DNA from: Porphyra umbilicalis
Lineage: Eukaryota; Rhodophyta; Bangiophyceae; Bangiales; Bangiaceae
Reading direction: 5' to 3'
NCBI GenBank assembly: GCA_002049455.2
Contig: KV918800.1
Coordinates: 248,001 to 312,000 of the forward strand
Length of the DNA: 64,000 nt
In this document: positions 7,118 through 58,289 of the stretch, piece after piece
Layout of the letters: every line of letters begins with the position of its first letter
How positions within the stretch are numbered: position 1 is the first letter of the stretch
The notes under the pieces: generated by a model
What the model saw: only the letters and a program-made list of their open reading frames with translations
Told to the model about the DNA's origin: nothing
The model's database searches: none
Program-made: the position numbers and the translations under genes

Positions 7118-8032
7118 TTAGAGCTCGTCTGGGATATCCGACGAGCTCTTGAGGTAGCCGAAAAAGTCGTCGACCAAGGTCGTGGCCGCTGCGTGAGCGA
7201 CTAAGAACGCTTCCCAGTCCTTGACCGCGGCGGGTTTGTCCATACTACGGCACCGTTCCATCCCAAAGCCAACAAGTCGAGCGCGACGTTAAAGGCACAA
7301 AAAACAAACACAAACGTGTCAGTACGCTTGTAGCTGCGTGGCACTCGCTGCACCCCCACCACCAGGACCGCTAGTGGGAAGCAGAGCTCGTGCTACCTGC
7401 ATCGCACGCCACGACCGCCAACCTTACACAGCCGCCACCAACCCCACGCGGCCCAGACGCAGCGGCCGTCCCCTGCTCGCCACATGGCCTGCTCCCCAAC
7501 CCCCCCCCCACGCCTTCTCGCTCACCCCCGAACGTACTCCTTGACGGTCTTACGCAAGGACTTGGCAATGGCCTCGACGGCCTGCTTGCTCTCCTTCCCC
7601 CGGCCCTTGCCGAGCGCGACCATATCGTCGCCGACCGAATAGAACTTGCGGAGGTAGGTGCGCACATTGTTCCACTCGGTCGTGTCCATCACCTCATGGC
7701 GTTCCTGGACGGTGGCACCAATCGCCTCCCACTGCTTGCGCGCCTTGAGCAAATTGTCCAGCTGCCGCGCGCCGGGCGGCAGCTGCGGGACGTCCTCGTA
7801 CGCGCCGGCGGGGGGGGCACGCCCGCCACGCCTGCCATCGATACGGCCGCGGCGGCGGCGACGGCCGCCGCCGCAGATGCGAGGAAGGAGCGTCGAGAAA
7901 CGGGGGGGGGGGCGCCGCCGCGGGGGAAGGGGGGGGGTGGGGGGCGGCACAGCGGCAGGGGCGGCGGGCGGACCGGACACGGGCGGGGGCCGGTCCGGCC
8001 GGGGCCAGGAAGCACGTCGTCGGGGACGCCAT
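7118..8032 (-). CDS. psbQ': Photosystem II extrinsic protein PsbQ' (two exons)
   Basis: Exon 1 runs 8032-7526 and exon 2 runs 7244-7118. The intron has a GTGAGC donor and a TAG acceptor. The product is a lumenal four-helix protein that stabilises the oxygen-evolving complex in red-lineage plastids. In order it shows: a plastid transit peptide (MASPTTCFLAPAGPAPARV), a twin-arginine thylakoid signal (SRRSFLASAAAAVAAAAA), and a mature part with AYEDVPQLPPGARQLDNLL, TEWNNVRTYLRKFYSVGDDM and, in exon 2, DKPAAVKDWEAFLVAHAAA to a SDIPDEL end. Transit, signal and mature parts lie in three frames. The changes fall in an 11-base G run (7902-7912) and an 8-base G run (7810-7817, plus strand), and one added base in each makes a single frame. 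Undercalled homopolymers are more likely than true breakage. The family call rests on remembered red algal PsbQ' features. Confidence 0.8.
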
Positions 8033-8671
8033 GGGGGCGCGGCGGTGTTGAGAGCGAGGCGAAGTGGAGGTGGAGCAGGCCGGCTCCGTCTGGTGAGATA
8101 TCCGACTTCGTGACGTCCGTACCAGTTCGTGACAAATCGGGGTTGTGCGCAGGGTTGCAAGTTTACGGTGTACTCATCCGCTGAAGGTTTCATTTCAGTA
8201 CAATTATAGAAAGGCTGACAGCATAGTTTTAGTAAGCATTTATGGAAGATTTATGCGTTCCACGTTCCAACATATATAAAACTTTATTCCGACAGTTTCG
8301 CCTGGCGATCTACCTTGTCACCGGCAATGGCGCGAGCTTACGGTGGCGCTGGGGGCAATGCCAGGCAGCCGTTTCGCGGGGGGGGGAGCTGCAGGCAATG
8401 CCAGGCAGCCATTTCGCTGGGGGGGCGGCGCTGCGGGCAATGCAAGGCAGCCATTTCGCGGGGGGCGGCGGCACTGGCTGTGTCGCCAGAGCGCGTTGTG
8501 GCTGGAGCCGATTTTCAATTACAGTACTTAAAGGAACCTTTACATGAGTAAATGGAAAGCTACTACCAACACGTGGTGCACACGTTGCACAATTATAGTC
8601 TGCCGATCCATGGTTTGCATTAATACAGTGAAAAGTTCAGGTGTATTAATCCGACTATAATTATCCCCTCT
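8033..8671. other. Upstream region of PsbQ'; short tandem repeat, no gene
   Basis: About 200 bp upstream of the PsbQ' start the DNA becomes AT-richer. Apart from the 41-bp repeats listed separately, short elements resembling ACAATTATAG occur at about 8,198 and 8,590, with an inverted partner near 8,653. No open frame is convincing. Confidence 0.4.
8353..8475. repeat. Three imperfect tandem units of about 41 bp
   Basis: Units start with GGCAATGCCAGGCAGCC at about 8354, 8394 and 8436, each followed by a G-rich tract of variable length. This is a simple minisatellite with no evident function. Confidence 0.8.
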
Positions 8672-8714
8672 CAACCCTGTAGGGTTGTGCAACACGCCCG
8701 GGGCGTGCTAAATT

Positions 8715-9343
8715 CCAGGCACGTGCGTGCAATACCCTGGCCTTCAGGGCGGTGGCGCGCTTGGCGACGCATCGACACCGGGCACGCCGGCCGACTCCAT
8801 AGCCGCGAGCGCGCATGGGGGCACGCACAGCCACGTTGCCGTGGCGGGGGAAACGTGGGGCGGGGAAAAGGGTGCCGCCGCCGGCACCGTAACGGCGGCG
8901 GCTCGCCGGCGTCGCGCGACGCCGACGGGAGGGGCCTTCACTCCGCCACACAGCGCACCTCTAATCGCGCCGCTAGATGGCAGGCCGACGGGCCGCCGCA
9001 ACAGAAGCCGGCGCGCAGGCACGATCACCCGCGGGTCATCGCGGGCGCGTTCAACCCCCGTAGTCGCTGCGCGCGGTCGCCGCGCCCAACTCGGGGCGGT
9101 GGGGGGTGGTACGGGGGGCAGGCACCGTCCGGGCCCTGTGACCCTTGTAGCAGGACAGTCCTTCTCAGCCACGTAACTCTATTCGCTTTTAGCGTCATCG
9201 CGACCCTTCCAACGTCGACACGCCCTCAGATCCCTGAGGACACGAATGCAGACTGCCATCTCTGAAATGGAGAGCAAGTCCCGTGATCTAAGTATATGTG
9301 TGCATCACTACACTTTGAGAGCACCCTGTCCTAAAGGCCAGGG
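8715..9343. mobile_element. 629-bp interspersed repeat, copy A
   Basis: It begins CCAGGCACGTGCGTGC and ends AAAGGCCAGGG, and sits between AATT copies (8711-8714 and 9344-9347) that look like a 4-bp target duplication. The distance between successive 162-bp host units (8680 to 9475) is 795, exactly 162 plus 633, so 629 bp plus one 4-bp duplication explains the insertion. It has no long open frame with a known domain and no clear terminal inverted repeat. CCCTGGCCTTCAGG near its start is almost complementary to its end. Confidence 0.75.
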
Positions 9344-9474
9344 AATTGCACGCCTGGGGCGTGCAATTTCACGTGTTTTGGGCGAGTCACGCCCTGCACG
9401 CTCAGAATTTTAGGGGCGTGATTGGGGCGTGCTTGATAAAGAAAAGTACATCATTTCAAATGCGCTCTTGGGGC

Positions 9475-9798
9475 TAGGGTTGTGCAACACGCCCGGGGCA
9501 TGCTAAATTGCACGCCTGGGGCGTGCAATTTCACGTGTTTTGGGCGTGTCACGCCCTGCACGCTCAGAATTTTTGGGGCGTGATTGGGGCGTGCTTGATA
9601 AAGAAAAGTACATCATTTCAAATGCGCTCTTGGGGCTAGGGTTGTGCAACACGCCCGTTGCGTGCTAAATTGCACGCCTGGGGCGTGCAATTTCACGTGT
9701 TTTGGGCGTGTCACGCCCTGCACGCCCAGAATTTTAGGGGCGTGATTGGGGCGTGCTTGATAAAGAAAAGTACATCATTTCAAATGCGCTCTTGGGGC
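9475..9798. repeat. Second and third 162-bp tandem units of the hAT-like left end
   Basis: Two head-to-tail units (9475-9636 and 9637-9798) are nearly identical. Each starts TAGGGTTGTGCAACACGCCC and includes GGGGCGTGCAATTTCACG and a GATAAAGAAAAGTACATC stretch. With the interrupted unit at 8680 they make three terminal copies. Confidence 0.85.
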
Positions 9799-10702
9799 GC
9801 CAGTCCACCAAATATTTTTCGGTGCAGTTCCGTGCCACCTTTGTTACTTTTTCAGGGCGCGGTGTCTTCCTGCTCCGCCGAGCGTCCATAAACAAGGTGC
9901 TCGACGCTATGAGGAGTGGGAACCATTTTTCCGTCCTGCGCCCACAAACAAGGTGCTCGACGCCATGATGCGCGGACGCCATCTATGCGGAATGGCACAG
10001 CAACGGCCACCTGCTGTCATCAGCCAGGTAGGACGCAGAGGGGCTCCTTGACACGGGCGCCAATGAGGACGTTGAATGCGACGCATCGCGCGCCGGCAAC
10101 GACCAGGCCGACGGCAGTGATGGAGGGGTGCCGGCGGCGAGCTACGCGCCTCCTGAATGAGGAGGTCGCCCGATGCGCCATGGTTGGCGCCGGCGTCCCT
10201 GGACCGGACTTTGGTCGTCCCGGCGACGAGGACGCCCCCGCGGCCACGACGGAGAATGATTTGATGACCATCTGCTCTGGCTTTGTGCGCGGTGAGATGG
10301 GTGGGACAGCGGGCGGTGGGGCGGCCGGTGGAGGCTAGGAGAGCCGACGTCCCGTGATGCTGCAAAGCATCTTTGACGCAGAGTGGCAGAGGCCAAGAGA
10401 GTGTATCGCATACAGCTGTTTCCTTCATGTTTTCTGGCATTTTTGTGGTCCTTTGAACCATCCAAATTGCAAGAATACTGGGTACTTTGAATCGCTTATC
10501 AAGTAAGTGGCAAAACATGGGGGCTACATTAGGGGCGTGAAGAGCGGCGTGCCAATGTTGGGGGCGTGCAGAAGGGCGTGCATCGCCCACCCCGCCACCC
10601 AAAAAGGGGCGTGATGCACAACCCTACAACCCTGACGCGAGCAGCAAATCGACATGTCTTGGGCTGCAAAAACTTGGTGGCGCCTCCCTTACAGTACAGT
10701 AG

Positions 10703-11777: not shown

Positions 11778-13624
11778 ATGGCGACGGCCGTCACGGCCGC
11801 CAAGGAGCGGCTCATTGCGGCGCTCGTCGCCGCCCAGCTGGGCGTCCGCGCCGCCGTCCGGCGGCGGGCGGCCGCCGCCGCGCGCGCGCGCGCCGCCGCC
11901 GCCGCCGCCGCTGCCGCCGCCGCCGCCACCGCGGCGAGCGACTCGGACGCGGAGGGCGACGGGACGGACGAGGACGCGCCGCTGCTGCCGAGCACCTCGG
12001 TGGCGTCGGCCCACGTGCGGGGGGGGGGGGCGCGTCCGCTGGGGATGGGGGGCGGCCTGACCGCCGCGCGAGCCGCGGGCGGCGGCGGCAGCGGCGCTGT
12101 CGCCAGCGCCGGCGCCGGCGGCCCCGCTGACCATGAAGGTGCCGCCGCCGACCGGGCGTCGTCCAAGGCGCGGCGTGTGCGCTCCTTTTGCCGCCGCCGG
12201 GGGACACCCCCCTGGGGCGTGCCGGACGCGGCGGTCGCGGGCGCCCTCTTTGCGGCCGCCCTGGGCGTGCGCCTGTGGCGGCTCGGCTCCCCCCCGACAT
12301 TGTCTTTGACGAGGTGCACTTTTCGCGGTTTGTGTGGTCCAACTACTGGGCCGGCCGCTACCTCTTTGACATCCACCCGCCGCTCGGGAAGTTGACGCTC
12401 CTCGCCGTTGCCAAGGCGGTCGGCGCGGTGCCGCGGCTGCCCCAAACGCCGATGAACGGCATGGCGTTTGGGGCGCAGGTGTACGTGCCGCTGCGGGCGA
12501 CGAGTGCGGTGTTTGGGGCGGGGGTGCCGCCCCTCACCTACGCCCTCGCGCGGGAGCTCGGCTTGGGCGTCGCCGCGTCGACGCTGCCGGCGGTGGCGGG
12601 GGCGCTCGACCACCTGGTCGTCGTCGAGTCGCGCCTCATCCTCCTCGACGCGCAGCTGCTCTTTTACATTGTCGCGGCGCTCTACCTCGCGGTGCGGCTG
12701 TGGAAGGCGCGGCGGCGGACGCTCGGTCGGCTGCGGCTGCTCGTCGGCACCGCCGCCGCCGGCGCCGCGGCGGTCGGCGTCAAGTACACGGCCGTCGCGA
12801 CGCCGGTGCTCATTGCGGGCGTGTCGCTGCTCGGCGGGCCGACGGGGGCGGCGACGCGCCTCGAGGTGTGGGAGATGGGTGTTGCCGGCGCCGTCGCTGC
12901 CGCCCTGTACGTGTCCCTGTTTGCGCTCCACTTTTGGTTGTTGCCGGGCACGGGCGACGGCGACGGCTTTATGCTCCGCCCCTTTCAGGAGGCCCTCGTC
13001 GGGGGGCCCCACTACAAGCCGGGCGCGCCGCGGCCGCCCTTTTGGCGCTCCTTTGTGTGGCTCAATGGGGAGATGTATCGGGCCAACGCGCGCATCACGG
13101 CGAGCCACGGGTGGCAGTCGCCGTGGTACACATGGCCCGTGTCCCTCCGCGGCATCTACTACCACGGGGGGTTTGACGCCGCGTCGGGCGACAATACGCA
13201 AGTGTATTTGATTATGAACCCGGCGGTGGCGGCGGGGACGGTGGTCGCCATGGCCGCCTTCCTCGTCTGGGCCGCCGTCTGGTACGCCCCCCGGTGGCGG
13301 CGGGGCGTACTGCCGCCCGTGTCGCGCGCGCACCACACGGCCAAGCTCGGCGCGCTGTGCGTGTGCGGCTACGCCCTTAACCTGCTGCCGTACGTGCTCG
13401 TGACGCGGTGCACCTTCCTCTACCACTACATCCCCGCCGCGTGGTGGGCGCAGCTGCTCGCTGCGGTGGTGGTGGACGGGCTGCCGCCCAAGCCGCGGCG
13501 GGCGGTCGTGGGCGTGGCGGCGGTGGCCATTGCCGCGGCCTACGTGTACTGGGCGCCGTGGATTTACGCCACCCCGCTGTCGGCAGCGGCGCACGCGCGC
13601 CGCCGGTGGGGGCGCTGGTCGTAG
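11778..13624 (+). CDS. Protein O-mannosyltransferase (GT39 family)
   Basis: This multi-pass ER enzyme would move mannose from dolichyl-phosphate mannose to Ser/Thr of secretory proteins. The start at 11778 lies in a good context. The first 120 residues are a cytosolic Ala/Arg/Asp-rich tail. Then follow LWRLGSPP, DIVFDEVHFSRF (the acidic first-loop motif of the family), YLFDIHPPLGKLTLLA, repeated hydrophobic helices, FWRSFVWLNGEMYRAN, and ASHGWQSPWYTWPVSLRGIYYH (the C-terminal PMT block). About 615 residues is shorter than fungal enzymes because no MIR module is present. The N-terminal segment and the rest lie in adjacent frames, joined at a seven-C run (12289-12295) where one extra C gives a single frame, so this is probably a consensus error. 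It is convergent with the RWP-RK gene. Confidence 0.85.
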
Positions 13625-14455: not shown

Positions 14456-16150
14456 TCAGGCGGCGACGACCATGTCACCGTCGGCGGCGTGCCCCCCTTC
14501 AGCGCCGGCGCACAGCTCGACGCACATGCCCGACAGGGCGCACACGTCCCCACGATCGCCGCGCACCGGGGTGAGGACTTGAAGGAAGCGGCGGTCGCCC
14601 GCCTCAAACGTCCACTCGACGCGCTCGCCCGCCACGGCGCGGGCGTAGCTCTGCGGCTGCAAGCCAATCGGGCGCAGATGCGACAGGCGGCTGCTGCTGC
14701 CGACCGTAGCGGGCGCGCCGCCGGGGCGGCCGCCGCCGTCGCCGCCGCTGCCCGTCCCGCCGTCGCTGCCGCTGCCACCACTGCTGCCGCCGCTGCCGCC
14801 GCGGCCGCCGCCGACAACGTCGGCCGGCAGGCGGTGCGAAAGGGGGATGGCCTCCCCCACGGCTGGCACGCCGACGCAGCGCAGCAGCGACGCGTCGCCC
14901 GTTGCGAGCGTCACGACCAACCCCCGGCTGGCCGTCCACAGGGCCAACCGCAGCGCCGTGCACGCGCTCGTCGTCCGCTCCACACGGCGGGCGGCGACCG
15001 AGCGGGAGCTCCCCGACGCCGACGAGCTGCTCCCGTTTGAGCCCTCCCCGTGCAGCGGCGGCTGCGACGGGGGCAGTAGCCGCTTGCCCGTCGCCGCCCC
15101 CAGGGCGGCCACCACCTGCGGGCGCTCGCGGCCGACATTGGACGTGGCGCCCTTGGCGCCGGCCACGCCGGCGCGGCCCCCAGGCCCACCGCTACCGCCG
15201 CCGCCGTCGCAGCCGCCGCCGAGCACCGCGCCGCGCCGGTCGCACACGTCGCTGCCCGACGTGCCCGCGTCGCCCGACGGCGGGGTCGTCGACTTGCGCG
15301 TGCGCTTGGCGGGGGGGAGGTCGGCAGAGTCGCCCGCCCCCGACCCGCCGTCGCCGCTGCCGTCCTCGCCCGCATCGTCGCGGTCGCTACTGCGCTCCGC
15401 CCGCTTGGCGGCGACACGCCGAGCGGCGGCGGCGGTGGCGGCGGCAGAGGCGGCAGCGTCCGCCGCGGCGGCCGCCGACAGCGAGCCAAACACCCGCCCG
15501 CCGCCGCCACCGCCGCCGCTGCCCAGCGGCGTGCCGCCGCTGCTGATGCGGTGCCCCCCGCCGTCCACCACCCCACCGCCGCCGCCGACCACGACGCCAC
15601 CTGGGCCAACCGGCCGGCCAGACGCACCCACACGGAGCACGTGGTGGTGGTGGTGGTGGTGGTGGTGATGGCGCCCGTGCGCTGCCGCCCCGCGCCCACT
15701 GTTCCCAATGTGCGGGGAGCCGTGGGTGGTCGCGCCCGCGGGGCCTGCCAGCGGTCGCCCGACCGCCACTGGCGGCGAGTCGCCGCGAACAAACATGGCG
15801 CGGCTGCCGCTGCCACTCCCCTGCACGCTGCCGCCCGTGTCGTGGCCGCTCTGTCGCGCCGCCTCGGCGCCGTCCATGCCGACGGCGCCGCTGCCGCCAG
15901 CGCCAATGGCGCTGCCGCCACCCGCATGGCCGACACCACTGCCGGTGGGTGTGCCCCGGAAGCGGCCCGTGGCCGACGCCGCGGCAGCCATACCCGTCGC
16001 CTCTGTCGAGCCGGCCCGATGAGGGAAATAGGCGTCAGCGTGGCGGCTGGCGTTCCGAGGCCGCTTGTGCGCTGCGGCCCCGGCCGCCGACGGCGGTGCA
16101 GAGGCGGGGGCAGCGGGCGGCTGCACGACCCCGCTGCCGCCGCCATCCGC

Positions 16151-16182
<32 letters not shown>

Positions 16183-19087
16183 GCGCGTCGCGGCCGGCCG
16201 GCTCGACCGGGGCCGACGGGCGGACGCCCGGCTTGACCACTGGCGGCACGGTGCTCATCGCCGCGTCCATGCCCGTATCCGACGCGGCCGTGTCGGCGGG
16301 TGACTTGGACGACCGGTGCCGCGGCAGCATCCGTGCCGCCGCCGCGTGGCGAGCCGCGTCGGGCGCCTCAGCGCCGCTGCCGCCATCACCGCCCATGCCC
16401 GTGCCCGACCCGCTCCCATTGCCGTCGCCACTCCCGCTGCCGTCGCCGCTCCCATTGCCGTCGCCGCTGCCTGTCCCGTCGCCGCTGCCATTCCCATCGC
16501 CACTGGCCGAGCCGCTGCCACTGCCGAGCTCCATGTTGCTCCCAGAGCCGCTGCCCGAGCCGCTGCCACCGCCCCCGCCGCCGACACTGCCGGCGACGCC
16601 AACGCCGACGCCACTGCCGCCGGCCCGCCGGCCCGCCCCGTCCCCTTCCTCTTGCGACGCCGGCTGCCGGGCGCCGCGGCGGAGCTCGGCAGACTCGTTG
16701 GGCGGATCCTCCCCGTGGGGTGACTCTGCCAACCCCCGGCGGCGGTCGCCAATGCGATCGCCCGGGCCGACCAAGCCACCCGGCGTCCCCCGGCGGCCGA
16801 CTGCCGTCGGCAGCGGCACCTGCCGCGCCGCGGCGCCGCCGGCCGTCCGGTCTGCCACCACCCCGCCACCGCCACTGCCGTCGCCGCCGCGGCCGCTGCC
16901 ACTGTGGAGCTGCTCCTCCCCCGACGGCTCGCGGCGTGGAGCCGCGCGCGCGCCGCCGCCCGCCAACCGCGCGGGCGTGTTGCCGAGCCGCGGCGTCGAC
17001 GTGTGGTCCGACGCCGAGCCCGACGCCATGCCCGTCCGCATTGGCCGCCGGGCGGACGGCGGCGGGCCCACGCCGCCGCCGCCACGGGCGTCGGCGTCGA
17101 CCCCGTCGCCGACAACAACGCCGCCGCCGCCACCGCCACCGCCGCCGCCACCAGTCGGCGTCTTGGGCGTCAACGGGGGCGCGCCGGCAGGGCCGCCGGC
17201 GTGCGGCGTTGTTGATGCCTCACCGCCACCGGCGGCCGCCCCGCGGGCGGCCGCCCCGCCAGCCATCCACGGGGGCGGCAAGGCGCCGGCGCCAGCGCCG
17301 CCGAGCGTGCCCGCCCCAAACGCCGGGGGCACCCCAGCCGGCCCCGCCCCATAGTGGAACGGGTAGGCCCGCGGATCCCCATATACGGGAAAGTTGCGTA
17401 CGCCCGGTGGCGGCGGTGGCGGGGGGGGCGGGGGAGTGGGCGCCGCCGACGACGATGCCGCGGCCGCTGGCGCCCCGCTCGTCGCTGGCAATCGCTGCGT
17501 GACGCCACCGCTGCCAGTTGCCGGCGTGTCCGCCTTGAGCGGCGCGCCGGGCGCGCCCGGCGCCGCACCCGGCGGGCGAAAGGCCCCCCCAAAGCCGTCG
17601 ACCGGGGGCATGATGGGCGGCGGCGGCGGCGCAAACGGCATGGACGACAGAAAGTGCATTTGGGACGTCGGCACGCCCGTCGAAAAGCACTCACACCCGT
17701 ACATGACGCACACGGGCACTGGGAAGGAGCCCGGCGGCCGCGACGACGGGGTGGGGGGGAGGGGCGGCGGCGGGCCGCCGGGCATCACGCCGCCCGGCGG
17801 CGGCGGCAGCGGGTAGCCGCCCGGCCCAAAGGGCATCCCAAAAGGGAAGCCAGGGTAGGGCGGCGGCGGCGGCGGCTGTCCGACGGCTGGTGCGCCCGGG
17901 TAGAGCGGCGCGTCCATGCCGCCGAGTGGAAAGGGGAGTTGCTCAAAGCTCGCCGCCGCCATCCGCTGCTGTTGCGTCGCCGCTGCTGCTGCTGCCGCCG
18001 CCGCCGCCGCCTGCGGCTGCGGAAGCGGGGCGCCGCGCACCCCAAACGGCGCGCCCGCCGTGGAGAGCGCATAGGCCGGATCCCGCAGCGCGGGCGTCGC
18101 GTCGAGCGCCGCCGACCCGTCGGCGCGCGACTGCGCCGCCGGGGAGGAGGGCGTTTGAGCGCCGTCCGACGTGGCAGAGGAGGTGCCCTTGGCGGCGCGC
18201 GACGGCGTTGCCGCAGCCACGTTGCCGGCGGATCGAAAGATGTGCTCCTTCCGCTGGTGCAGCGTGTGGAGCTCGTGTTGGTAGTACTCCTTGTCGTCGG
18301 CGGTGGTTTGCTCCTTCTCCATCTTTTCGATGAGCTTATCGATGGAGACGAGCTTGCGGTACGGCCACCGCTTGACGCCGTGTCTCCTGCACTGCTTCTT
18401 CAGCACCGTCACGCAGGTGCCTAATTGTTTGGCAGCGTCATTGATGGGCAGGTGGAAGCACGACATCTGAGGGACAAAAGCGCAAGAGCAAGAGGAAAAA
18501 AAAAAAGCAAAGGAGAGCCCGAGAGGATACAGTGGCAAGAAAAGCATGTCAGTGAGCTGCAGACGCAACCAGGCACGGGCACGTAGGTGACGTGACGGCC
18601 GAGTCGCCATCGCCACGACGAACGCGGCCACACCCGGATACCCCACCGCAATCTACGACTGCGCGCGTCACCATCAACGCCGCCGACGCCTCCACCGCTA
18701 ACCCCTCCATTGTCCGCGTTGCTGCACGCCCCCCACCGTGCAAGCCCGAGCTCGCTCGGCGACAGAGCCGAGAGCGCCGCAACGCCCGCTTCCCACACCG
18801 CTCCTCGACTTTTGACAGCACGGTCGTCGCCGTCGCGTACGCTCTCGGATCCCCAACCCCAGCCCCTCCGCCTCCCACCGAACCCTCTACGACAGACGTC
18901 GCCACTCTCCCCCCCCCCCGGCCGCCCCCGTCGTCCCTCCCCAACTCTCCATCGCCGACCGTCGGCAACGTACCAAGTCCGCAATGGACAAGTTCTTGCT
19001 CTTGTTGGCCACCGACGCGCCCGCCGACATGTTGCCATTGCCCTCATCGCCGCTGTCGCTGACGCGGAGGTGGCCCCCCGACTCCAT
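14456..19087 (-). CDS. RWP-RK transcription factor with a C-terminal PAS-like region
   Basis: Exon 1 is 19087-18974 and exon 2 is 18466-14456. The intron has a GTACGT donor, and its acceptor CTCAG follows a long pyrimidine tract. The splice builds the domain: KNLSIADL joins MSCFHLPINDAAKQLG, then CVTVLKKQCRRHGVKRWPYR with the RWPxRK-type core, at about residues 31-85, followed by a charged helix (to about 118). RWP-RK proteins bind DNA and regulate nitrogen response or gametogenesis in algae and plants. Roughly 1,000 residues of Gly/Ser/Pro/Ala low complexity follow, including a ten-His run and GSGDGN repeats. The last 180 residues (LRLALWTASRGLVVTLATGD, then RRFLQVLTPVRGDRGDVCAL) look like a PAS-type sensor fold. 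The 5' start could lie further upstream. Size is about 1,374 aa. Confidence 0.85.
16390..16570. repeat. Coding minisatellite, 18-bp units (GSGDGN)
   Basis: Within the RWP-RK gene, 18-bp units encode alternating Gly, Ser, Asp and Asn in the minus-strand frame. Unit length is a multiple of three, so copy-number change would keep the frame. Confidence 0.8.
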
Positions 19088-21415: not shown

Positions 21416-21417
21416 TA

Positions 21418-34119: not shown

Positions 34120-34751
34120 ATGACGCGGTTCAGTGACGCCTCTAGGACGCCCTCAGGGGGGGTGCGTGCACCGCCGCCTGGCAGAGACCGCAGGTCGGGG
34201 GCCCCTCGCACTCCTTCTGGGGGGGGGGGGGGCTACTATTCCCCGAAAGGCGGGGCGGTGGGGCGGCGCCGGCGGGCGGGGCGGCGCCGGCGGGCGGGGC
34301 GGCGCCGGCGGGCGGGGCGGCGCCGGCGGGCGGGGCGGGCGGGACGCCGTCGGCGGGCGGGACGGGCAGGACGCCGTCGGCGGGCGGGGCGCCGTCGGCG
34401 GGCAGGGTAGCGCCGGCGGGCGGGGCGCCGTCGGCGAGCTCCAACTCCTCGTCTTCTCGGAGTGGTACAACCACGTCCCAGACGCCTGTACCGCCCGCCG
34501 GCCTGACTGGCCGCCTAGCGCGCCTCCTTTTGCCGCGGCTGCGCCATATTGGCGCCGTGGTCGCCCGCCTGCTACACGAGCGGGCGCGGGAAGAGGCGCT
34601 AGCGAAGTCGGCGGTGGCGGAGCGGGCTCGTGAGAGTGCCACATGCGAAGAGCGTGCACAGAAGCGGGCGCGGCTCGAGCTGGAGCGGGCCGCCGCGGTT
34701 TTTAGTCACATGAGGGCGTGGGAGGGGGGGCAGGGGGGTGGTGGGGTGTAG
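34120..34751 (+). CDS. Candidate low-complexity protein with a C-terminal charged helix
   Basis: A start at 34120 gives MTRFSDASRTPSGGVRAPPP and a Gly run. The adjacent frame then gives LLFPERRGGG, six-residue APAGGA repeats, a Ser/Thr linker and a long charged helix (LLHERAREEALAKSAVAERA, then QKRARLELERAAAVF) ending before TAG at 34749. The two frames meet at a 14-base G run (34219-34232), where one more G joins them, as in two other genes of this window. No family is known; the helix could be a coiled coil. Chance open frames in GC repeats remain possible. Confidence 0.4.
34255..34440. repeat. 18-bp tandem repeat coding APAGGA
   Basis: Units of GCGGGCGGGGCGGCGCCG and variants, the last ones diverged. 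Unit length is a multiple of three. Confidence 0.85.
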
Positions 34752-43100: not shown

Positions 43101-45420
43101 CATTGTTGCCAGCCACCCCCCCCCCGCCTACACCCCTGTCCGGGTCATGGGCAGGGTCATCGTGTGGTCTCCGCCCCGTCGCTCGACCACAGTGCCCTAC
43201 CCCCTGCCGGCGTGGGCGGGTCATGGGGGACCGTTGGCGGCGAGTGGGGTCCGCTGCCAGCTTTGCACGCGCCAACCCAGGCCTGCTGCAGCGGGGCGGG
43301 AGGGCACCCGGCTGGGCGACGACAGCCAGAAAGTCCCCCTTTTAGCCGGCGGTGGCCTGGTGTGCGCTGGTTGACAGAGCGAGGCGGGGACCCACGGGCG
43401 CCGCCGGAGCGGGTTGTGCGTGGGCTCGGCCGCCGCCCGCAGGGGGTGGGCGACGGGTACGCCCCGGTGGGTGCTCTGGAGCGTGGCGGGCTTGCGACCG
43501 GTGGGGTCGGCTGAGGGTGTGGGGCGCGACAGCAGGTGTCGGCGGCTGAGACTGCTTGGGAGGGAGCGCAGCAGGCGGGGGGGGGGTGGGGCTCGTTGCT
43601 GTGTCTGGGAACCTGCAAAGAAGATCCCTGTGGGTGTCACACGGCGCACGCTGCTCCTTTCCGCCTTGTGACGACCTGGTGGCCACGCAGTCGGCCTGCG
43701 AGGCCCTGAGCGGTTGCAGACGGGTGCACCGACGCGGACCGTGAGAGGGGGGGGGGTAGGGTGGTGTCTATTTGACGTCGACGCTGCTGTCGGCCCGCCT
43801 CTGCGGGGGTCGTGACGAGGGCGTTCACGGCGCAGCAGGGTGCCGCCAAGGACGCCGTGTGTAGGTGTTGGCGGGGACTCGCCGTGGCACCCCATTCGGG
43901 CCCGCCAAGGCCGCGGCGGTGAGGGGCTGTGTGTGGCGCAGCGTAGCGTGGCGAGGTGTGGCAGGGCGGGGTTCCTGGGGTCTGCAGCCACGGCGGCGGT
44001 TGCCGGTGGGCCAGGCGCTGTCTACACTCGGCAGCGGCCGCGGCGGCGTCTCTCGGAAGCACCCTTTCACCCAAACCACGATCCGGTAGGGGACCCTCAA
44101 CGGACCTTTGCGCGCTGCTACCCTGGCGCAAAGCCCACGGTTGGCGTGGCTGCTCCCGCTGGCACCTCGACTGCCGTGGGCTGCTCAACGCACCGTAGGG
44201 AACCCCCGTTTGCGTGACTGTGGGGCGGCCCCCAGCCGGCGCTTCCTCGACCGGCAGCTCGGGCGGCAGCTTGCGCCGACGCCCGCCCGCCCGCCCGCCC
44301 ACCCGCCTGCCCACCCGTCCCAAACGTTGGCCCGCTCGCCCCGCCGTCGTCGTCGCGCGCCCCGCGCCGCATCTGCCGCCACCTGTGGTGCGCGCATCGC
44401 ACGCGCGCACGTCCCCTGCATCTATCCACACACGCGCCTCAGTGTCTGGGGAGCCTACACCTCTCTTTAGCCGCCCTCTGTGAGGGGGTAACCGCTTTTC
44501 CGCCGACGGGGCTACGACGCCCCCCCCCCCCACAGGGAGGCGTTTAGCTTCTCCACCATTTCCCACATCCTCGCTGGCGGAGTTGCGGGGTCCCTCGCCG
44601 CGTCCCGCCCACACCCCCCGCGTCTCCCGCCCTGCCGCGGCGCGCTGACGACGGGTGTGCCCCCCCCCCCCCCCCCCCTCCGCGGCAAGCGCCGTGCAAA
44701 CGGTGGCGGCGGCGGCGGCGGGAGTGTCAGGTGCGGTTGTGCGCGGGGCACGGGTTTTCAGCGCCGCCGGCGCTTGGACCGGGGCACGCTAGCGCGCCGC
44801 GCACCCACCCCAGCCCCGCAACCCACGGCTGTACAGCGTCGCCGCGGCGGGCCGCGGTGGGCGGTGGGCGGCGGGCGGGCGAGCGTTGACCCGCGCGCAC
44901 CTTGGTTGTCCGACGCCCCCGCGTGTGGCGTGCGTGGTGGGACCGTCGCAAGGTGGGGCGGTCGTTCATTGGGGGTGTGGGTGTGCGCGGCGCGCCGCTC
45001 CGAGCCCGCAGGCACACAGCCCGCCGTCGCGAGTGCTGCTCGCGGCGGTGTTTTTGATTGTGCAGCGGGGCTTTTGTGCGAGGCCGTTGACCGCGCCGCC
45101 AGTCGGTCCACGCCACCGCGCCACCGCAAGGGGGGGGGGCGCCGACCGACGTTGACCGTCGCCTGCTCGCCGCGGCCCCATAACTCCCGGCCGACCGCAT
45201 CTCACCCTGCACCCCGTCCCAACACCTCCCCCCCTCTTCCTCCCCCTTCCCCACCGACCGCCGCCACATCACTCGCCGGGTCCTCACCGGCGACTCGCCG
45301 GTGGCGGACGTGAACGGCGACGCGTTGTGTTACGACGTGACGCTGTGGCACGCGGGGGCGTGTAGCGGCGGTGGTGGCGGCGGCGGCGGCGGCGGCAGAG
45401 GCGGCAGCAGCGGCGGCGCC
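40155..45420. other. Very GC-rich region, no gene recognised
   Basis: Overlapping frames of up to 370 codons occur on both strands without a named domain. Near 41,020-41,250 one plus frame reads LLCRCGPTGTRGAAPHLFLS then CDPVSERLAVEG, which recalls the C-x-C-H-C knuckle at the end of LINE proteins, but no reverse-transcriptase core is near. A possible small intron (GTAGGT to TTTCAG) lies at about 42,775-42,805. C runs near 44,520 and 44,660 reach 12 to about 20 bases. Confidence 0.4.
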
Positions 45421-47433
45421 ATGACGGGTGGAAGGTCAGCCGGCTGGGGAGCGAAGCGGTGGGTCGCTGGCGTGTCGGCGGTGCTCGCGGTGGCGGTAGC
45501 GGCCTGGTCGGCCGGCGGCGCGTCGGCGCAGGAAGCGGGCGTGACGGAGATCGCCGGGCCGCCACCAACGAAGCAGCCGCCCGTCGGCTGCAGCTATCGC
45601 AATGATGACGGTCTCCACATCAACACGTCCGTGTCGAAGCAGGTCTTGCTCATGTATGGGTCGGCGACGGACACCATCTCCTTCTCCTTTCGCCCGTCGA
45701 CAAAGACGGAAGAGATTGAGTCGGTGTCGATCAAGGGCTACAAGCGCGCCATCATCACGTCCGTGTCTGAGCCCGAGCAAACGGTGGTCGGCAATGTTGG
45801 TGGCGTTCCCGTAACCAACATGACCTTTACGATTGGGTTTGACGGAACCGTCGGCGACACGGGATACGAGGTGGAGGTGGTCACCGACGCTGACACGTAC
45901 ACGATGGAGGGCGCGTACGAGGTCGGCGGCTTTGTTCTCGTCTTGGACGAGAAGATTGTGAGCGGGGAGGAGAAGGACGGGCTGCAGCTTGGCGACGTCG
46001 TCGCGCTCGTCAAGAAGTCGCTCACCGAGTGCTCTATGAAGTGGAAGACGTTTGGGTCGGTGACGCCCGACGTCGGTGCCATCCAAATTTCCTTCAAGGA
46101 GCAGGAGGGCTCAACCTTCCTCAAGGAGGTGGAGTATGAAGACACCTGCGAGGTGGACGGTTACGTGGACAACAAGCTCGCGCCCGGCTGTGGCGTCGGC
46201 TTCTCTCCCGGCGGCAATGCGTTTGCGATCAAGACGTCGCCATACCGCTGCGGTTACGGCCAATTCTTCATCCACTTTACGTGGCCGTCGGTTGAGCTCA
46301 ACGGGGAGGTGTTTGAGACGGTGCTCATTGTCAAGTTTGACAAGTCTTCCCCACCCCCGTGCGTGGCACTGGGCGACACGGTGGAGGTCGACTCGTCGGG
46401 TGGCGTCGTGGCGGTCGACATGTTTAACCTGCTCAACCCGCCGCAGCCGTCGGACGTAGAGAAGGTCATTCTGAGCTACGACGGCAAGTCGTTCGACTCG
46501 AACAATGGCAAGTCGACGCTCGAGCAGCCCGACCAAAAGATGGTCTTTGAAGTGTCGGGGGGCACTTCGGGCGAAAAGTATGACGCGACCATCGAGTGCG
46601 CGTTTGAGGACCGCACCATTGAGGCCACCTACCTCGGCGGCAAGGTCGTCATTGACGTGACGGGCGAGGCCGGCTTGCCCGAGCGTAAGGACCTTCCCGA
46701 GCGCGACGGTAAGATCCGCGTCGCGGTGCTCATCGAGTTTGACCGCTACGATCCGACAAACTACACGGTCGCGGTGCACAACAAGTGCCTGGCGGGCTTC
46801 TTTGAGATGCTCGGCGGTGACGCGGATGACTATGGACTGGAAACCGTGCGCCAGGGCTCGGCCATCCCAGTGGTGCTGATGTACGCGGATGATCAGGAGG
46901 ACTATGATGCCAAGGTGGAAACGCTGAAGGCGGACCTGGCGGAGGAAAGCTGCAAGGGCCAGCAGGCCATGGACGAGCCGTGCGACAAGGTGCGCTTCCT
47001 CGAGTCGTACATTGTGGCGTCGGACGGCAGCGGCGTGTCGGGTGACAGCGGCGCCGCCGTCGCGTCTGCGTCAGGCCTGGCGACCTGGTCGATTGCGCTC
47101 ATTGCGGTGCTGGGCGCTTTGATTGTGATGCTGCTCATTGCGCTTGCCCTGTGGGCTGTCTACCGGAGGAGTGCGGAGCAGACCGAGTCCGACTACTCGA
47201 CGTCGGGCCCGCTCGGTGTGCCGGACCCCGACGACCTGCTCTACAACGAGTCGGTCGTCCGCGATGTGTACGGCAGGTCCAACGGTGCGGGGCCGACGCC
47301 CGAAACGGCGGCCGCCCGGGCACGGGAGGCCGAGCTTCGGGAAGAGTTCCCGCGCCCGCCGTCGACGTCTGCTGCATCGGGGCGCGCCGAGACAGACGAT
47401 GCGTCGTCCACGTACAGCGGGCTTATGGGGTAA
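45421..47433 (+). CDS. Secreted type I membrane protein, about 670 aa, unknown family
   Basis: The ATG at 45421 is preferred over the one at 45301 because it places a signal peptide (KRWVAGVSAVLAVAVAAWSA, then GGASA cleavage) at the start. An extracellular part of about 520 residues follows, rich in beta-type text with scattered Cys and NxS/T sites (NTS, NMT, NYT, NES). Similar segments recur (YTMEGAYEVGGFVLVLDEKI and RTIEATYLGGKVVIDVTGEA), suggesting tandem Ig/TIG-like modules. A single transmembrane helix (WSIALIAVLGALIVMLLIAL) at about residues 550-575 precedes a cytosolic tail of about 95 residues with acidic DDLL and YNES sorting-like motifs. It is intronless. It could act in cell-surface adhesion or the extracellular matrix; no family is recognised. 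Confidence 0.85.
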   Translation: MTGGRSAGWGAKRWVAGVSAVLAVAVAAWSAGGASAQEAGVTEIAGPPPTKQPPVGCSYRNDDGLHINTSVSKQVLLMYGSATDTISFSFRPSTKTEEIESVSIKGYKRAIITSVSEPEQTVVGNVGGVPVTNMTFTIGFDGTVGDTGYEVEVVTDADTYTMEGAYEVGGFVLVLDEKIVSGEEKDGLQLGDVVALVKKSLTECSMKWKTFGSVTPDVGAIQISFKEQEGSTFLKEVEYEDTCEVDGYVDNKLAPGCGVGFSPGGNAFAIKTSPYRCGYGQFFIHFTWPSVELNGEVFETVLIVKFDKSSPPPCVALGDTVEVDSSGGVVAVDMFNLLNPPQPSDVEKVILSYDGKSFDSNNGKSTLEQPDQKMVFEVSGGTSGEKYDATIECAFEDRTIEATYLGGKVVIDVTGEAGLPERKDLPERDGKIRVAVLIEFDRYDPTNYTVAVHNKCLAGFFEMLGGDADDYGLETVRQGSAIPVVLMYADDQEDYDAKVETLKADLAEESCKGQQAMDEPCDKVRFLESYIVASDGSGVSGDSGAAVASASGLATWSIALIAVLGALIVMLLIALALWAVYRRSAEQTESDYSTSGPLGVPDPDDLLYNESVVRDVYGRSNGAGPTPETAAARAREAELREEFPRPPSTSAASGRAETDDASSTYSGLMG

Positions 47434-50408: not shown

Positions 50409-50410
50409 TA

Positions 50411-53060
50411 AAGTCTATCCCATTCTATTAGACACCTGGTGTTTTGCAGCCTATCGTTGGCGTGCTTGCTCCAAACGGTTTCAAATCTTTGTAGTAACCT
50501 TCGATGACGGGTTCCGCGTGAGCACACCAAAAATCACGTTGAGAAGCGCAGTTCATCGGCCGCTGTGGTGTGTACACCTCCGGCGGCATCGATCTGGTCA
50601 CACCGATACCGTCCGTTCCGGACCATCTCAGATTTGGTCGAATCCGATTCGAGCTTGATCCCAACTTGAGGGGCTACTTTACTCATATTCAAAGAGACAA
50701 GAGATCAACACGCGATGCTCGCGCGACCACATCCAAGGATCTTCGATGCCGGAAGCGCCGCGCATCATAAATTGAAGCGCTGGCGCCAAGCAAGCAGTCT
50801 TGACATGCTAAAATCTGTGACTCCCTCAAAACATTTCTCTGTCAACGCCCAAATCAAAGCATGCCCACGCCGACAAAGTCGCATTCACTCCACGTCCTCC
50901 TCATCCTCGTCCCCCTCATCCTCCCCATCCTCCTCACTGGAGCTACAACCGTTCACACCGTCCGCCTCAGCGTCCTCCAGCTCAATGTCCATCTCATCGG
51001 CACGGTCCTCCACCTCCGCCCTCATGGCGGCCATGTCCATGTAGTAGTCCTCCATGCTGATGGCGTGGTCCTCGTACTTCGCCCAGATCGCTGCCGACAT
51101 CTTATTGAACTCCACGTCGACGAGCTCCGGGAGACGCGTAAGGTTGAAAGTGACGTTTGCTTAGCGTAGAGCAACCTTCACGGTGCCCCAAACCATCTCA
51201 ATTGGGTTGAGCTCTGGGTGTGCCACAGGAGAGAAGATGATTGAGACGTCAGACTCCTCCGCCAAGTCTTGCACCAAGTAGCGTGGTGTCAGGCGATGCT
51301 TGGCGGCCTGGGCGCGCATTTGCGCCACGATCTTGGCTTGGCGCCACGTAGGCGACCAGTTGGTCGGTGCCGCGTCGTGCTCCTCGAGCCAATCAGCCAG
51401 TTGGCTCTTCTTCATCGATGAATTAGCCGGTCGGGATTCCTCGGTCAGCTGCATATGGTTGGGAGCTCGGTCGACGACAAGCACCCCACCGCCAATCTTG
51501 GGAAGCACTTGGTCTTGAAGCCACTTGAGCCACACCGCCGAGTTCATTTCGCCGTGGTAGTCGCCCGTCTTCTTCTTGCCCTTGAAGACGAGACTTGCAC
51601 CTGGCACGAGGCCTGTCTTGCGTGACCCGACATGCGCGATGATGATCCGTGCTCCCTTTCCAGATGGCACGTTTAGGCGAGCGCGTGACGACTTGTCCGT
51701 CCAAATCCGCCCCGGTGTCATGTTCTTGTTCGCCCAGGTCTCGTCGGTGTAGAAGATAGTGCCCTCGTCTGCACGATACTCCCGCATCTTCTTGATAAAG
51801 TTCTCGCGTTGCTTGACGATAGACCGCTTCTCGCGAGCCACATCATAGTGGTTGGGGCCCCGTGTAAACTTGAACCCCAGGTCCGTCATTGCTCTGTGAA
51901 GCGTTGATCGAGACCACTTGTAGTCGGAGAGGTCGTCGCCCTTACCTGCCCCTTCCTCCAATAGTGCGAGGGTGCTGTCTAATGTGGGAACAGTCTTATC
52001 TGCGTACTGGGTGTACACGGTCTCGCGCACGCGCGAAAGCTCAGAGGCAGGAACGCGACGCTTGCTCACACGACGCTCCCGCTTCCCCGACAAGGGTCGA
52101 GTATCGGCATACTCCCCGTGCGCGATACGGATAACCGTGCTGCGGCTCACCCCAGTCGCCGCCGCCGTGCGGTCGACGGGCTGCTCCAGCATCTCTGCGG
52201 CATGGTTATCACGTTCTGAGGTGAAAAAGGCACGCAGCCTGCCAACAAGAAGCACAACCTCCCATGTGATGCGGCGCACCGCGCGCACGCGCGTGCGCGG
52301 CTTCCGCGCGACCGCACGCGTGGTCGGCATTGCGACTCACTGCGCAAGGCAACACCCAGAGCACTCAGGCGCGAGCAGATGGGGGGTCGGGGGCGCAGGG
52401 GGGCGTGGAGGGGAAGGGCGTTGGGAGAAGGTGCTGGGCGGAGGGGCGCGCGGGGAACCAGAAGGGCACGACACCGTCGGGGGCGGCCGTGGCGCGAGGC
52501 GCAGCGCACGGGCTCAGTCGGCCACCGCAGCCCGCAGTGTGCAAGGCTGGGGCAAAAAAAGCGCGCGCGCGCGAAGCGCCTGATTGCCCAGGCTCGCCGA
52601 CCTCGGATCAAAAACGCGCACTCGGCGGATCAAGAAATCTTCAAAGTAGCCCCACAGTTCGGATGGATGATTTTCAATCGTTGCAAGATTTTTGCGCTTC
52701 TTTGCTACGACCGTGTTGGCAGGCCTCTGCAGACCTTCATGTCAGCTGGAATACCGCGACCACTGGCCAGTATGACTCGACAGGATATGGGGACATCGGC
52801 TGGAGGCCAAATTCCTGGTTGGTGTCTATTCTTGTCGGGTAGGGACGGCAAAAAGCCCCCAGAGACAGTTTTGCGCTGTGTTCAGGCACGACGATGAGAC
52901 GCTTCTCGAATGCCTATGCGTCTCATCTTCTGGAACAAGGATGTCGAGTGGGTTTCTATTGCGCACGAGAAATCCGCTTGTAAAAAGCTGTTGATGCGGC
53001 CGAGCTATAGCGAGACATAAAAGTCCTGTTCTCAGGGGTCTAATAGAATAGGATAGACTT
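50411..53060 (-). mobile_element. Complete Tc1/IS630-type DNA transposon, 2.65 kb
   Basis: The ends begin AAGTCTATCC and stay inverted over about 28 bp (to TATTAGAC and CCTG) with two mismatches. TA flanks both sides (50409-50410 and 53061-53062). One gene, the transposase, lies on the minus strand. The remaining DNA on both sides has no second gene that I could support. Confidence 0.88.
50885..52330 (-). CDS. Tc1/IS630-superfamily transposase, one in-frame stop near the C-terminus
   Basis: An N-terminal helix-turn-helix (TAAATGVSRSTVIRIAHGEY) precedes a DDE core: IFYTDETWANKNM, GVLVVDRAPNHMQLTE and VAHPELNPIEMVWGTV. About 90 residues separate the second Asp from the Glu, far more than the 34-37 of classical Tc1/mariner. 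The insert contains KKSQLADWLEEHDAAPTNW, a helical block seen in some wide-spaced families such as Sailor (DD82E), by memory. A TAA at 51163-51161 follows VALR, and the same frame continues ANVTFNLTRLPELVDVEF, then WAKYEDHAISMEDYYMDM and an acidic tail to 50885. This continuation looks like the genuine end of the protein (482 codons). Confidence 0.88.
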
Positions 53061-53062
53061 TA

Positions 53063-56000: not shown

Positions 56001-57729
56001 TGAAAGGCCCGACGGAGGGGCCAGATGACAAGGTGGCGCAACGACGGAAGAGAGCGGAGAGGCAGTGCTGACACTGCCGCAAAGAGGCGCGCTGCTGACC
56101 ATTTCTGGGCCTTGGTGTTGAGTGTATACTGTACAGTGGGGGTTCCCCGAAGGCATCTGTAAACGCTTTTCGCGGAATCTGTAATCGCTTGCATGTGTAA
56201 TCCATCTGGACCAGAGCGATCATGAGCCATGGAATGCTGAAACGTGGATATTCTTGATTGGGCGTGCAGATGGGACCATCCAATCAAATGGCGTAGAGGG
56301 TGGCCATCAAATTGACAAGGGCCATCCATTCTATGCAACGTGGCTGCCTGAGCGTTGAGAACACGAATGGATCCCTACTAGAAGCTTCGCTAAGAGCACA
56401 CCCAGCAATGTCGCCAGTTCACACACGTAGCAGATATTCGTGCCACGTTGTCCACGTGGCGTATATACGCACAACCTAGCAATGTCGGCGTTCGTTCCGG
56501 CTTCACAAACGGTGCGGGACCCACGGAACGTGTTAAAAACCGAAATGTAATTACAACGGGATAACTCAGGCGTGGTTCGCACACTCGGTCGCATCGTGCG
56601 AACCGTCCCCAAAAAACGGCCTATATTCTCCCGGGTTCGTACGATGCGAACGCCCGTGCGAGCCCAAAATCGGCCAATTCGGTGACGCGTGGCACCATAC
56701 TTCTTTTCAAACCTCTTTCGAACGTCGGCAAAAGTTTTGCTGTCTGCCGACGGACGACGGCGAGCTCTACGTAGACGAGTCATGCTGCCTCGTCCAGGTG
56801 ACGCAGACACACCTTTTCAGCCCATCCGGACGGCCGCGCCCGTACGTTTTTGCGGCTGGGGTGGCGTCGCGACCAAACTCGGCAACCCCTCCAGTCCACA
56901 AATTGTCTCTCGTGTGGACTGCATCAAAGAGAGAGGTTGCTGGCGGGATCTCCCACCTCCGGAGGTGCTGGCGTGGCACAATGTGTCTGCGCGCTGCACC
57001 AAGAGGCAGCACCGCTGTCCTGTGCACCACGCCATGGGCCGTCATCGACCCCGGGTTTCTGTCTGCCGCCGTTCATGCCCCGATGACGGGGCGGGGAGGG
57101 GTGCGGTGGCCGGAACAGCGGTGGCGGTGACGACGCGAGCGGGGCGGTGACGACGCGGGCGGGGCGGCGGCGACGCGGGCGGGGGCGGCGAAGACGCGGA
57201 GGGGGCGGCGCGGCGTCGGCTGCCGCTGCCGCCGAAGCCGTCACCACCGTCCACGCCATTACGGCCGTCGCGATGGCACGCCGGCACCCCAGCGGCGGCG
57301 GCGGCGGCGGCAGCCGCGGCGGCGGGGCTTTGGCACGCAGCCTCTTTCCGGGCGGCCTTCGCCTGATATGCCGTCACTTGGGCGGGTGCGATCACCGCCT
57401 GCACGTCACCGCGCTGCTACGGCGGGCGCAGCGGGCGCGCAGGTACTGGTCGGCGAGGCGGCGGGGCGGGGGCTCGGCAGCTGGGCGGCGGTGTGTGCGG
57501 CGGCATTAGACGGCTGGGGAAAGGGGGGGTGGAAAGGGTCAGACGCCTTGTTGCGGCTGCACCAGCGGTGAAAGATCCGCATGTGGCGGGGTACGCGTTG
57601 CAGAGGGATGGCGCGGGCGCATTAAAGATGGCAGGCGGGGCCCACGCAGGGGGCGGGAGAGGCGTGACGCGGGATGGACGGGGGAGGAAGGAGGGAACGG
57701 GGGGGAGAGGACGAGGCTCTTTGCTGCAC
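53063..57729. other. Less GC-rich DNA, unrecognised ORFs
   Basis: The frame at 53688-54095 (SYYFFQRNGDLIALPVYAPQ) is coherent but matches no family. A frame ending at 57130 (LPTDDGELYVDESCCLVQVT, then RPRPYVFAAGVASRPN) is another candidate. Near 56,580-56,670 CGCATCGTGCGAAC and its near-inverse recur, as in a promoter palindrome. At about 57,368-57,750 two plus frames (LGSWAAVCAAALDGWGKGG, then RRLVAAAPAVKDPHVAGYAL) meet at a G7 run. None is firm. Confidence 0.3.
54658..54725. repeat. 68-bp hairpin with arms of about 33 bp
   Basis: GTGAGGAGCA at the left pairs with TGCTCCTCAC at the right, and TCATTTTTTCTTCATT pairs with AATGAAGAAAAAAATGA around the centre. There are a few mismatches. It may be a small foldback or MITE relic. 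Confidence 0.75.
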
Positions 57730-58289
57730 TTAGTGCTTTCTGTAGTGTAAAACTTCGAAGACAATGGCACGTGTGGTCACGACTGTTGCCACCTCGGACA
57801 AGACAGTGGTCGCCAAGGAGGATGAGACGAATACGGCAGAGCAGTACACTGGCCGACACGTAAAACACGCACTGCTGGTGGCAGCTACAGACTCTGGACG
57901 AACATGAAGCGCGTGAAACAGCGCAGCTGACTCTGGCAGTCTTTCTTTGCAGAGCATGCAGAGCCCGACGTAGGACTCGAAGGAGAAGCTGCCACGACGA
58001 AGTAAAGCTGAGGACTTCGGCTGTGACGGCATCGTCCCTCCGCCTGGCGCACGAAAACAGCCCAGCGCCGCTCCGAAAAAATGTCCATCGCCATAGCTTT
58101 TTCACGGAGGCCCGCTCGATGCTGCTGGGGCTTGCTGAAGGACGCCGACCAACGATTCAGCACCACACAAGCAAATGGCACGTGCTTGCTCGTTGCGCGC
58201 CCTGATGGCGAGTGCCCCCTTTTTGGTGGCAGCTCAGTCACCAACACGGTCGAGCTGGCGGGAACGGGCTGAGTGCCCTCGGGAAGCAC
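57730..58289 (-). CDS. Candidate Cys-rich protein, frame changes once
   Basis: The minus strand reads STVLVTELPPKRGHSPSGRA, SKHVPFACVVLNRWSASFSK and AMDIFSERRWAVFVRQAEG. In the adjacent frame it reads MPSQPKSSALLRRGSFSFES, YVGLCMLCKERLPESAALFH and SACFTCRPVYCSAVF, ending HYRKH and a stop. One missing base in a GGG at about 58,033 would join them. Paired CxxC motifs suggest zinc binding. No ATG starts the upstream part, so an exon may precede it. Family unknown. Confidence 0.3.

What the first reader, a model, noticed from the sequence alone, without database searches (positions are those of the whole stretch)
7526..58289. Repeated single-base frame changes at G/C runs suggest systematic undercalling
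Seen directly: PsbQ' (runs at 7810 and 7902), the mannosyltransferase (C run at 12289) and the candidate gene at 34120 (G run at 34219) each change frame by exactly one missing base inside a homopolymer. The candidates near 57,500 and 58,033 show the same sign. Random decay would give gains and losses at any site. Inference: the consensus loses one base at many G/C runs, so gene models across this assembly may be falsely broken.
Basis: partly seen in the sequence, partly recalled or inferred. Interest (0 to 1): 0.7.

Follow-up and report, generated by a model that had tools for sequence, protein, structure and literature searches.

The report
Bases lost at G/C runs
In this red-alga-like genome assembly about a third of the long G or C runs that could be tested inside genes read as one base too short, which makes intact genes look broken; it looks like an ordinary sequencing artefact of a known kind, not biology.

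Summary
The window comes from a GC-rich, red-alga-like assembly (83.8 Mb, 665 contigs). One cited example is firm: the O-mannosyltransferase at 11778-13624 loses one base at the C7 run at 12289, and read through it aligns without a gap at the junction to solved PMT chains. The PsbQ-like gene (7118-8032, minus) has one credible break (7810) and one merely possible (7902). The breaks at 34219, 57500 and 58033 are not supported. The larger claim holds elsewhere. By codon phase, 8 of 21 coding sites at G/C runs >=7 are shifted as by one missing base, 0 as by one extra base, 13 not at all; among control positions 3 of 322 are shifted. In a second panel single runs gave 4 of 11 shifted -1 and 0 shifted +1. 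An Aurora-type kinase (G10) and a ValRS-type synthetase (G16) are broken the same way. Most testable runs are in phase, and runs of 7-11 agree between near-identical copies, so undercalling is partial. No reads were available; the technical cause is inferred. A/T runs could not be compared. Residual indels at G/C homopolymers are a known long-read consensus problem.

The parts
11778..12395 (+). 5' frame of the O-mannosyltransferase (PMT) gene, N-terminal region and first membrane helix; frame lost at 12289
12289..12295 (+). C7 run where the PMT frame changes by one missing base
12188..13624 (+). 3' frame of the PMT gene (PF02366, PF16192)
12019..12030 (+). G12 run in the same PMT gene for which the HMM places no frame change
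7526..8032 (-). exon 1 of a PsbQ-like thylakoid-lumen protein (targeting part 7810-8032, mature part 7526-7809)
   Evidence: weak PsbQ match with exon 2
   Evidence: sequence inspection; no transcript
7118..7244 (-). probable exon 2 (last helix, ends DIPDEL-stop)
7810..7817 (-). run of 8 (C on the coding strand) with a credible one-base frame change
7902..7912 (-). run of 11; frame change possible but not testable
34219..34232 (+). G14 run; claimed frame change not supported (upstream frame without coding signal and not kept in copies)
34437..34748 (+). protein frame shared with three other places in the assembly (61-81% identity)
57523..57529 (.). G7 run in DNA without clear coding signal; claimed frame change not supported
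15311..15317 (-). G7 run inside the RWP-RK gene (14459-18646), in phase: a counter-example
61148..61155 (+). C8 run in coding sequence, in phase: a counter-example

Best explanation
The assembly consensus is often one base short (sometimes more) at long G or C runs, a residual error of noisy long-read consensus calling in a GC-rich genome. Reads disagree about the length of a long run and the consensus settles on a shorter one, so a gene crossing the run changes frame in the assembly but not in the organism. Shown here: the frame changes, their concentration at G/C runs >=7, their one-sided sign and their presence in conserved genes. Inferred: that the DNA of the organism has the longer run, and that the cause is sequencing and consensus calling. 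The platform that made this assembly is unknown.
For: (1) Codon-phase test on 302 kb: 8 of 21 G/C-run sites shifted 'one missing', 0 'one extra', 13 in phase; controls 3 of 322 shifted (p = 7e-9). (2) HMM with no prior on place: 25 shifts, 19 'missing' and 6 'extra' (p = 0.015); 16 of 25 lie within 30 nt of a G/C run >=7, where 7.9% of coding bases lie. (3) Out-of-sample panel: 4 of 11 single runs -1, 0 +1; three clusters gave -1, +1/-2 and in phase; controls 69 of 69 in phase. (4) Conserved genes broken by one missing base: PMT C7; Aurora-type kinase C339 G10; ValRS-type synthetase C158 G16; kinase C518 G12 and PAK-like kinase C388 C7 (joined halves score above the Pfam cut-off); SNF2 gene C54 G7 (codon phase). 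The Aurora, ValRS and PAK names are recalled from motifs. (5) No other close copy of PMT or of the PsbQ-like gene was found in the assembly. (6) Two near-identical 1-kb copies with 1 substitution differ in their longest runs, G25 against G30 and C36 against C34. (7) Precedent: a 73% GC Streptomyces PacBio assembly polished to QV>50 kept 205 indels, nearly all in G or C homopolymers, corrected with Illumina reads (PMC4832174, passages).
Against: No reads or transcripts were available. Most testable long runs are in phase (13 of 21; 7 of 11 single runs). There is no monotone rise with length: 6 of 6 single runs of 8-9 are in phase while 3 of 7 of length 7 are shifted. 12 of 21 sites and 18 of 25 HMM events come from four very GC-rich loci where coding calls are less certain; outside them 2 of 9 sites are shifted and the HMM gives 5 missing, 2 extra. 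The codon model was trained partly on pieces of the same loci. In three pairs of near-identical copies runs of 7-11 have equal length in 10 of 10 comparisons; this speaks against frequent random loss there, unless the loss is the same in both copies or reads were pooled. In the C158 synthetase the flank before the run has no positive codon score. One kinesin gene (C165) lost a base where no run of 6 or more exists, about 250 bases from a contig end. Run lengths have no hard cut-off (up to 29, 36). The length differences between copies could be real mutation.
Confidence: 0.86

Rival explanations
1. The run lengths are right and the genes are decaying pseudogenes.
For: Run slippage is a common real mutation (general knowledge), and the longest G/C runs differ between near-identical copies.
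Against: Decay would give both signs; the shifted single runs are -1 in 6 of 6 and 4 of 4. The broken genes include an Aurora-type kinase and a ValRS-type synthetase. Codon usage on both flanks is undegraded at C339, C518 and C54. No other close copy of PMT or the PsbQ-like gene was found.
Confidence: 0.06
2. The run lengths are right and the organism restores the frame by -1 ribosomal slippage or by transcriptional slippage at G/C runs.
For: Homopolymers are slippery in principle; the sign is uniform; nothing in the DNA alone excludes it.
Against: The same genes carry long runs that are in phase and would be destroyed by general slippage: G9 beside the shifted G10 in the C339 kinase; G12 beside the shifted C7 in PMT. 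Site-specific signals were not looked for.
Confidence: 0.03
3. The frame changes are introns whose boundaries lie near the runs.
For: Introns are present: in the C37 PsbQ, in several kinases, an AMP-binding gene, the PMT paralog and probably the PsbQ-like gene. Of 17 truncated-domain stretches read, six show an intron-like break instead of a shift.
Against: At the PMT, C339 kinase, C158 synthetase, C518 and C388 junctions the profile or protein alignment continues within a few codons and leaves no room for an intron.
Confidence: 0.05

Closest known systems
Residual homopolymer indels in long-read consensus assemblies of GC-rich genomes (Streptomyces albus SM254, PMC4832174)
   Same: Indels remaining after long-read polishing lie nearly all in G or C homopolymers of a very GC-rich genome (passages).
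   Different: Bacterium; errors there were corrected with Illumina reads, which were not available here. The passage gives no sign for the indels.
Gene-fragmenting false deletions in nanopore assemblies (Kastor, PMC12007338)
   Same: Most indel errors are false deletions, and deletions are tied to homopolymers (passages).
   Different: There A/T runs were the worst and runs of 4-5 gave most deletions; here G/C runs >=7 show the effect and A/T runs cannot be tested.

Membership tests
Long-read consensus undercall at homopolymers | Frame changes concentrate at homopolymer runs | tested here: met
   8 of 21 run sites against 3 of 322 controls; 16 of 25 HMM events near runs
Long-read consensus undercall at homopolymers | One-sided sign (bases missing) | tested here: met
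   8 to 0; 19 to 6; 4 to 0 single runs, with one +1/-2 at a three-run cluster
Long-read consensus undercall at homopolymers | Error rate rises with run length | tested here: inconclusive
   single runs: 3 of 7 at length 7, 0 of 6 at 8-9, 3 of 4 at 10+; between copies 10 of 10 runs of 7-11 agree and 2 of 2 runs of 25 or more differ
Long-read consensus undercall at homopolymers | G/C runs differ from A/T runs | not testable with these tools
   0 A/T runs >=7 inside called coding sequence against 75 G/C runs
Long-read consensus undercall at homopolymers | Accurate reads show a longer run | not testable with these tools
   no reads available
Protein O-mannosyltransferase (PMT) | PMT and C-terminal PMT_4TMC domains | tested here: met
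   PF02366 and PF16192 above cut-off
PsbQ / PsbQ' | Match above the PF05757 cut-off | tested here: not met
   14.7 bits against 26.9 for the spliced mature protein; best family, but below cut-off
Programmed -1 frameshifting | Conserved slippery site and downstream structure across relatives | not tested
   the assembly has no relatives here

The most novel reading that the evidence does not exclude
The run lengths are correct and this red-alga-like organism decodes many genes through G/C-run slippage (ribosomal or transcriptional), a genome-wide recoding that I do not recall being described for red algae. One combined search (homopolymer, red alga, frameshift, genome assembly) listed 6 papers, none a red-algal genome study by title.
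Probability: 0.03. Interest if true: 0.85.

Novelty: already known. Interest (0 to 1): 0.2.

Why it matters
Gene models and gene-loss claims for this assembly should not be trusted where a long G/C run crosses a coding region. Conserved genes, including an Aurora-type kinase, a ValRS-type synthetase and a mannosyltransferase, look broken but probably are not. The codon-phase test used here needs only the assembly and can audit other GC-rich assemblies.

Tried and rejected
Run-length distribution as a test: no cut-off and a long G/C tail; it cannot separate undercalls from true lengths, and the apparent surplus of even lengths in the window is not seen in the larger sample. First codon models were trained with wrong-strand or wrong-frame seeds; the model was rebuilt and only onward is used. 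Duplicate copies: of three near-identical pairs two differ by at most 3 substitutions and no indel (three runs of 7-8 in each, equal), one differs in its two longest runs; not decisive. ABC_tran (128 candidates, 19 scored) showed no split match and SNF2 (23 rows) only distant pieces, read as insertions or introns.

Considered and rejected: a break at 34219. The 57500/58033 examples (no clear coding signal). Introns as a general cause (no room at the junctions).
Full report
What the window is. The window is bases 248001-312000 of contig C40 in an assembly of 83.8 Mb and 665 contigs. GC is 64% in the window and in a 267-kb sample. Contig C665 (185,000 bases) looks like a red-algal plastid genome: it holds a groEL-type chaperonin, a ribosomal protein S16 and an ORF that I recognise as a histidyl-tRNA synthetase (name recalled). 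GC of 64-68% is reported for Bangiales (passages of PMC7423979). I treat the organism as a Bangiales-like red alga; the species is not established.

The mannosyltransferase break is solid. ORF1 and ORF2 meet at the C7 run at 12289. ORF2 carries PF02366 from profile position 17 and PF16192 and matches solved PMT chains. Read through the junction, the protein aligns without a gap at the junction. Other DNA matches to the conserved domain are pieces of a paralog on C159 (67-84% identity), which reads intact apart from an apparent intron. In the gene at 7.5-8.0 kb, the mature part is coding (7532-7810) and sits about 20 nt and one base from a twin-arginine targeting stretch, so the break at 7810 is credible. 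The break at 7902 lies between that stretch and a transit peptide without codon signal and cannot be judged. The gene probably does not end at 7526: a GT-AG intron (7245-7525) and a second exon ending at 7118 fit the reading frame (inspection only). The spliced mature protein's best Pfam family is PsbQ, at E = 0.032 and below cut-off. The one match above the PsbQ cut-off lies on C37. At 34120 the downstream frame belongs to a repeated protein family with three other copies at 61-81% identity, but the upstream frame has no coding signal; in the C165 copy upstream and downstream frames are out of step although no long G run is there, in the C21 copy the upstream frame holds stops, and the C411 stretch is too short to tell. 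So a one-base loss at 34219 is not shown. The regions at 57.5 and 58.0 kb have no clear coding signal, and there is no G/C run >=7 at 58033.

Codon-phase test. I trained codon usage on chaperonin and PMT genes plus self-selected coding pieces of the sampled loci (GC by codon position 0.70, 0.49, 0.88). On the training seeds it picks the right frame in 378 of 379 120-nt windows. For each G/C run >=7, or cluster of such runs, I asked whether the best frame on the left continues on the right. With 120-nt flanks 21 sites could be scored: 13 in phase, 8 shifted as by one missing base, 0 as by one extra base. Among control positions away from runs 319 of 322 were in phase and 3 shifted -1 (Fisher p = 7e-9). 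Three other settings gave 7 shifted -1 and none +1 at run sites (of 17, 19 and 21 sites); one of them had one +1/-2 among its controls. Twelve of the 21 sites are in four very GC-rich loci (L013, L014, L016, L021); outside them 2 of 9 are shifted.

HMM without a prior on place. In 302 kb, 69 kb was called coding, with 25 frame shifts: 19 'missing' and 6 'extra' (p = 0.015). Sixteen of 25 (13 missing, 3 extra) lie within 30 nt of a G/C run >=7, where 7.9% of coding bases lie. Eighteen of the 25 are in the same four GC-rich loci; the other seven are five 'missing' and two 'extra'.

Conserved genes across the genome. Match tables for chaperonins (13 rows), class I tRNA synthetases (11), kinases (144; 125 of 277 candidates scored), SNF2 (23), ABC (19; 19 of 128 candidates scored), AMP-binding (18) and kinesin (15) show mostly continuous frames. 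Splits with no room for an intron were found at a ValRS-type synthetase (C158, G16), an Aurora-type kinase (C339, G10) and a kinesin (C165). I then fetched 18 stretches at truncated or stop-bearing domains (one, L059, only 97 bases and not read) and 8 at split or stop-bearing domains. C518 (G12) and C388 (C7) kinases are shifted by one missing base: the C518 halves joined with X score 36.5 bits against 18.8 for its second half alone, and the C388 halves 40.6 against 28.8 for its first half and no hit for its second. C54 (G7, SNF2) is shifted by codon phase, but its downstream half has no supporting Pfam match, only a weak hit to an unrelated family. Regions with several long runs (C344, C375, C3) show net -1 shifts, and twice a net +1/-2, which fits a loss of two bases or losses at two runs but does not prove it. 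Of the other stretches read, six (C441, C550, C111, C86, C97, C19) look like introns; C433 has an intron and an in-phase C7; C102, C34 and C636 show no shift; C80 and C4 are undecided; C2 has an in-frame stop. In one search, C54 (AMP-binding) is an intron, C354 has an in-frame stop, C137 is undecided and C360 and C645 keep their frame. In the panel of 29 loci given to, 14 of 44 run sites or clusters could be scored: single runs 4 shifted -1, 7 in phase, 0 shifted +1; clusters one -1, one +1/-2, one in phase; controls 69 of 69 in phase. A second setting gave 4 -1, 5 in phase, one +1/-2 cluster and 72 of 73 controls in phase. The panel was chosen mostly for broken domains, so its rate is biased upward; its sign is not.

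Counter-evidence. Long runs in phase are common, sometimes in the same gene as a shifted run: G9 beside G10 in the C339 kinase, and G12 at 12019, where the HMM places no shift, in the PMT. Single runs of length 8-9 were in phase in 6 of 6 cases, so a rise of error with length is not shown. The C165 kinesin lost a base where no run of 6 or more exists, about 250 bases from a contig end. Long A/T runs do not occur in called coding sequence (0 against 75 G/C runs), so the effect may not be specific to G/C.

Duplicates. Three pairs of near-identical kilobase copies were compared. Runs of 7-11 have the same length in both copies in 10 of 10 comparisons, and the two longest runs of one pair differ: G25 against G30 and C36 against C34. 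That pair has 992 matching bases, 1 substitution and, besides these runs, two one-base alignment gaps near its start. Equal lengths at 7-11 speak against frequent random loss there, unless the loss is the same in both copies or reads of the copies were pooled.

Mechanism. The best reading is consensus undercalling at long G/C runs. A one-sided sign in conserved genes is hard to explain by decay. General slippage during expression would ruin the genes that carry in-phase runs. A published precedent is a GC-rich long-read assembly whose residual indels were nearly all in G or C homopolymers (PMC4832174), and false deletions at homopolymers in nanopore assemblies (PMC12007338). Only passages of these papers were read.

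Practical consequence. About a third of testable G/C runs >=7 in coding sequence look one base short (8 of 21; 4 of 11 single runs in the biased panel). Most conserved domains are intact. Broken frames at G/C runs in this assembly should not be called pseudogenes without reads.

Noticed in passing
window 31088-33466 (-): A Tc5/pogo-like transposase is split into two ORFs (HTH_Tnp_Tc5 in one, DDE_1 in the next); the break near 32420 is not at a G/C run >=7.
   Followed up: partly
window 34437-34748 (+): Protein frame repeated at C411, C165 and C21 (61-81% identity), preceded by tandem GGxP-type repeats; no Pfam family.
   Followed up: partly
window 51161-52330 (-): 389-aa ORF with a DDE_3 transposase domain.
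   Followed up: no
window 14459-18646 (-): Open frame of 1396 aa with an RWP-RK domain (E = 7.5e-19).
   Followed up: no
window 45301-47430 (+): 710-aa frame with strong coding signal and no Pfam family.
   Followed up: no
window 7118-7525 (-): Unreported probable intron and second exon of the PsbQ-like gene, ending DIPDEL-stop.
   Followed up: partly
L038 (C159:151601-153700): PMT paralog whose apparent intron near the DEFHF motif carries a C25 tract.
   Followed up: no
L043/L044 (C278 and C171): Near-identical duplicated kilobase whose two longest G/C runs differ in length (G25/G30, C36/C34).
   Followed up: partly
L065 (C354:12301-13250): AMP-binding gene with one in-frame TGA and no run of 7 or more nearby.
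   Followed up: no
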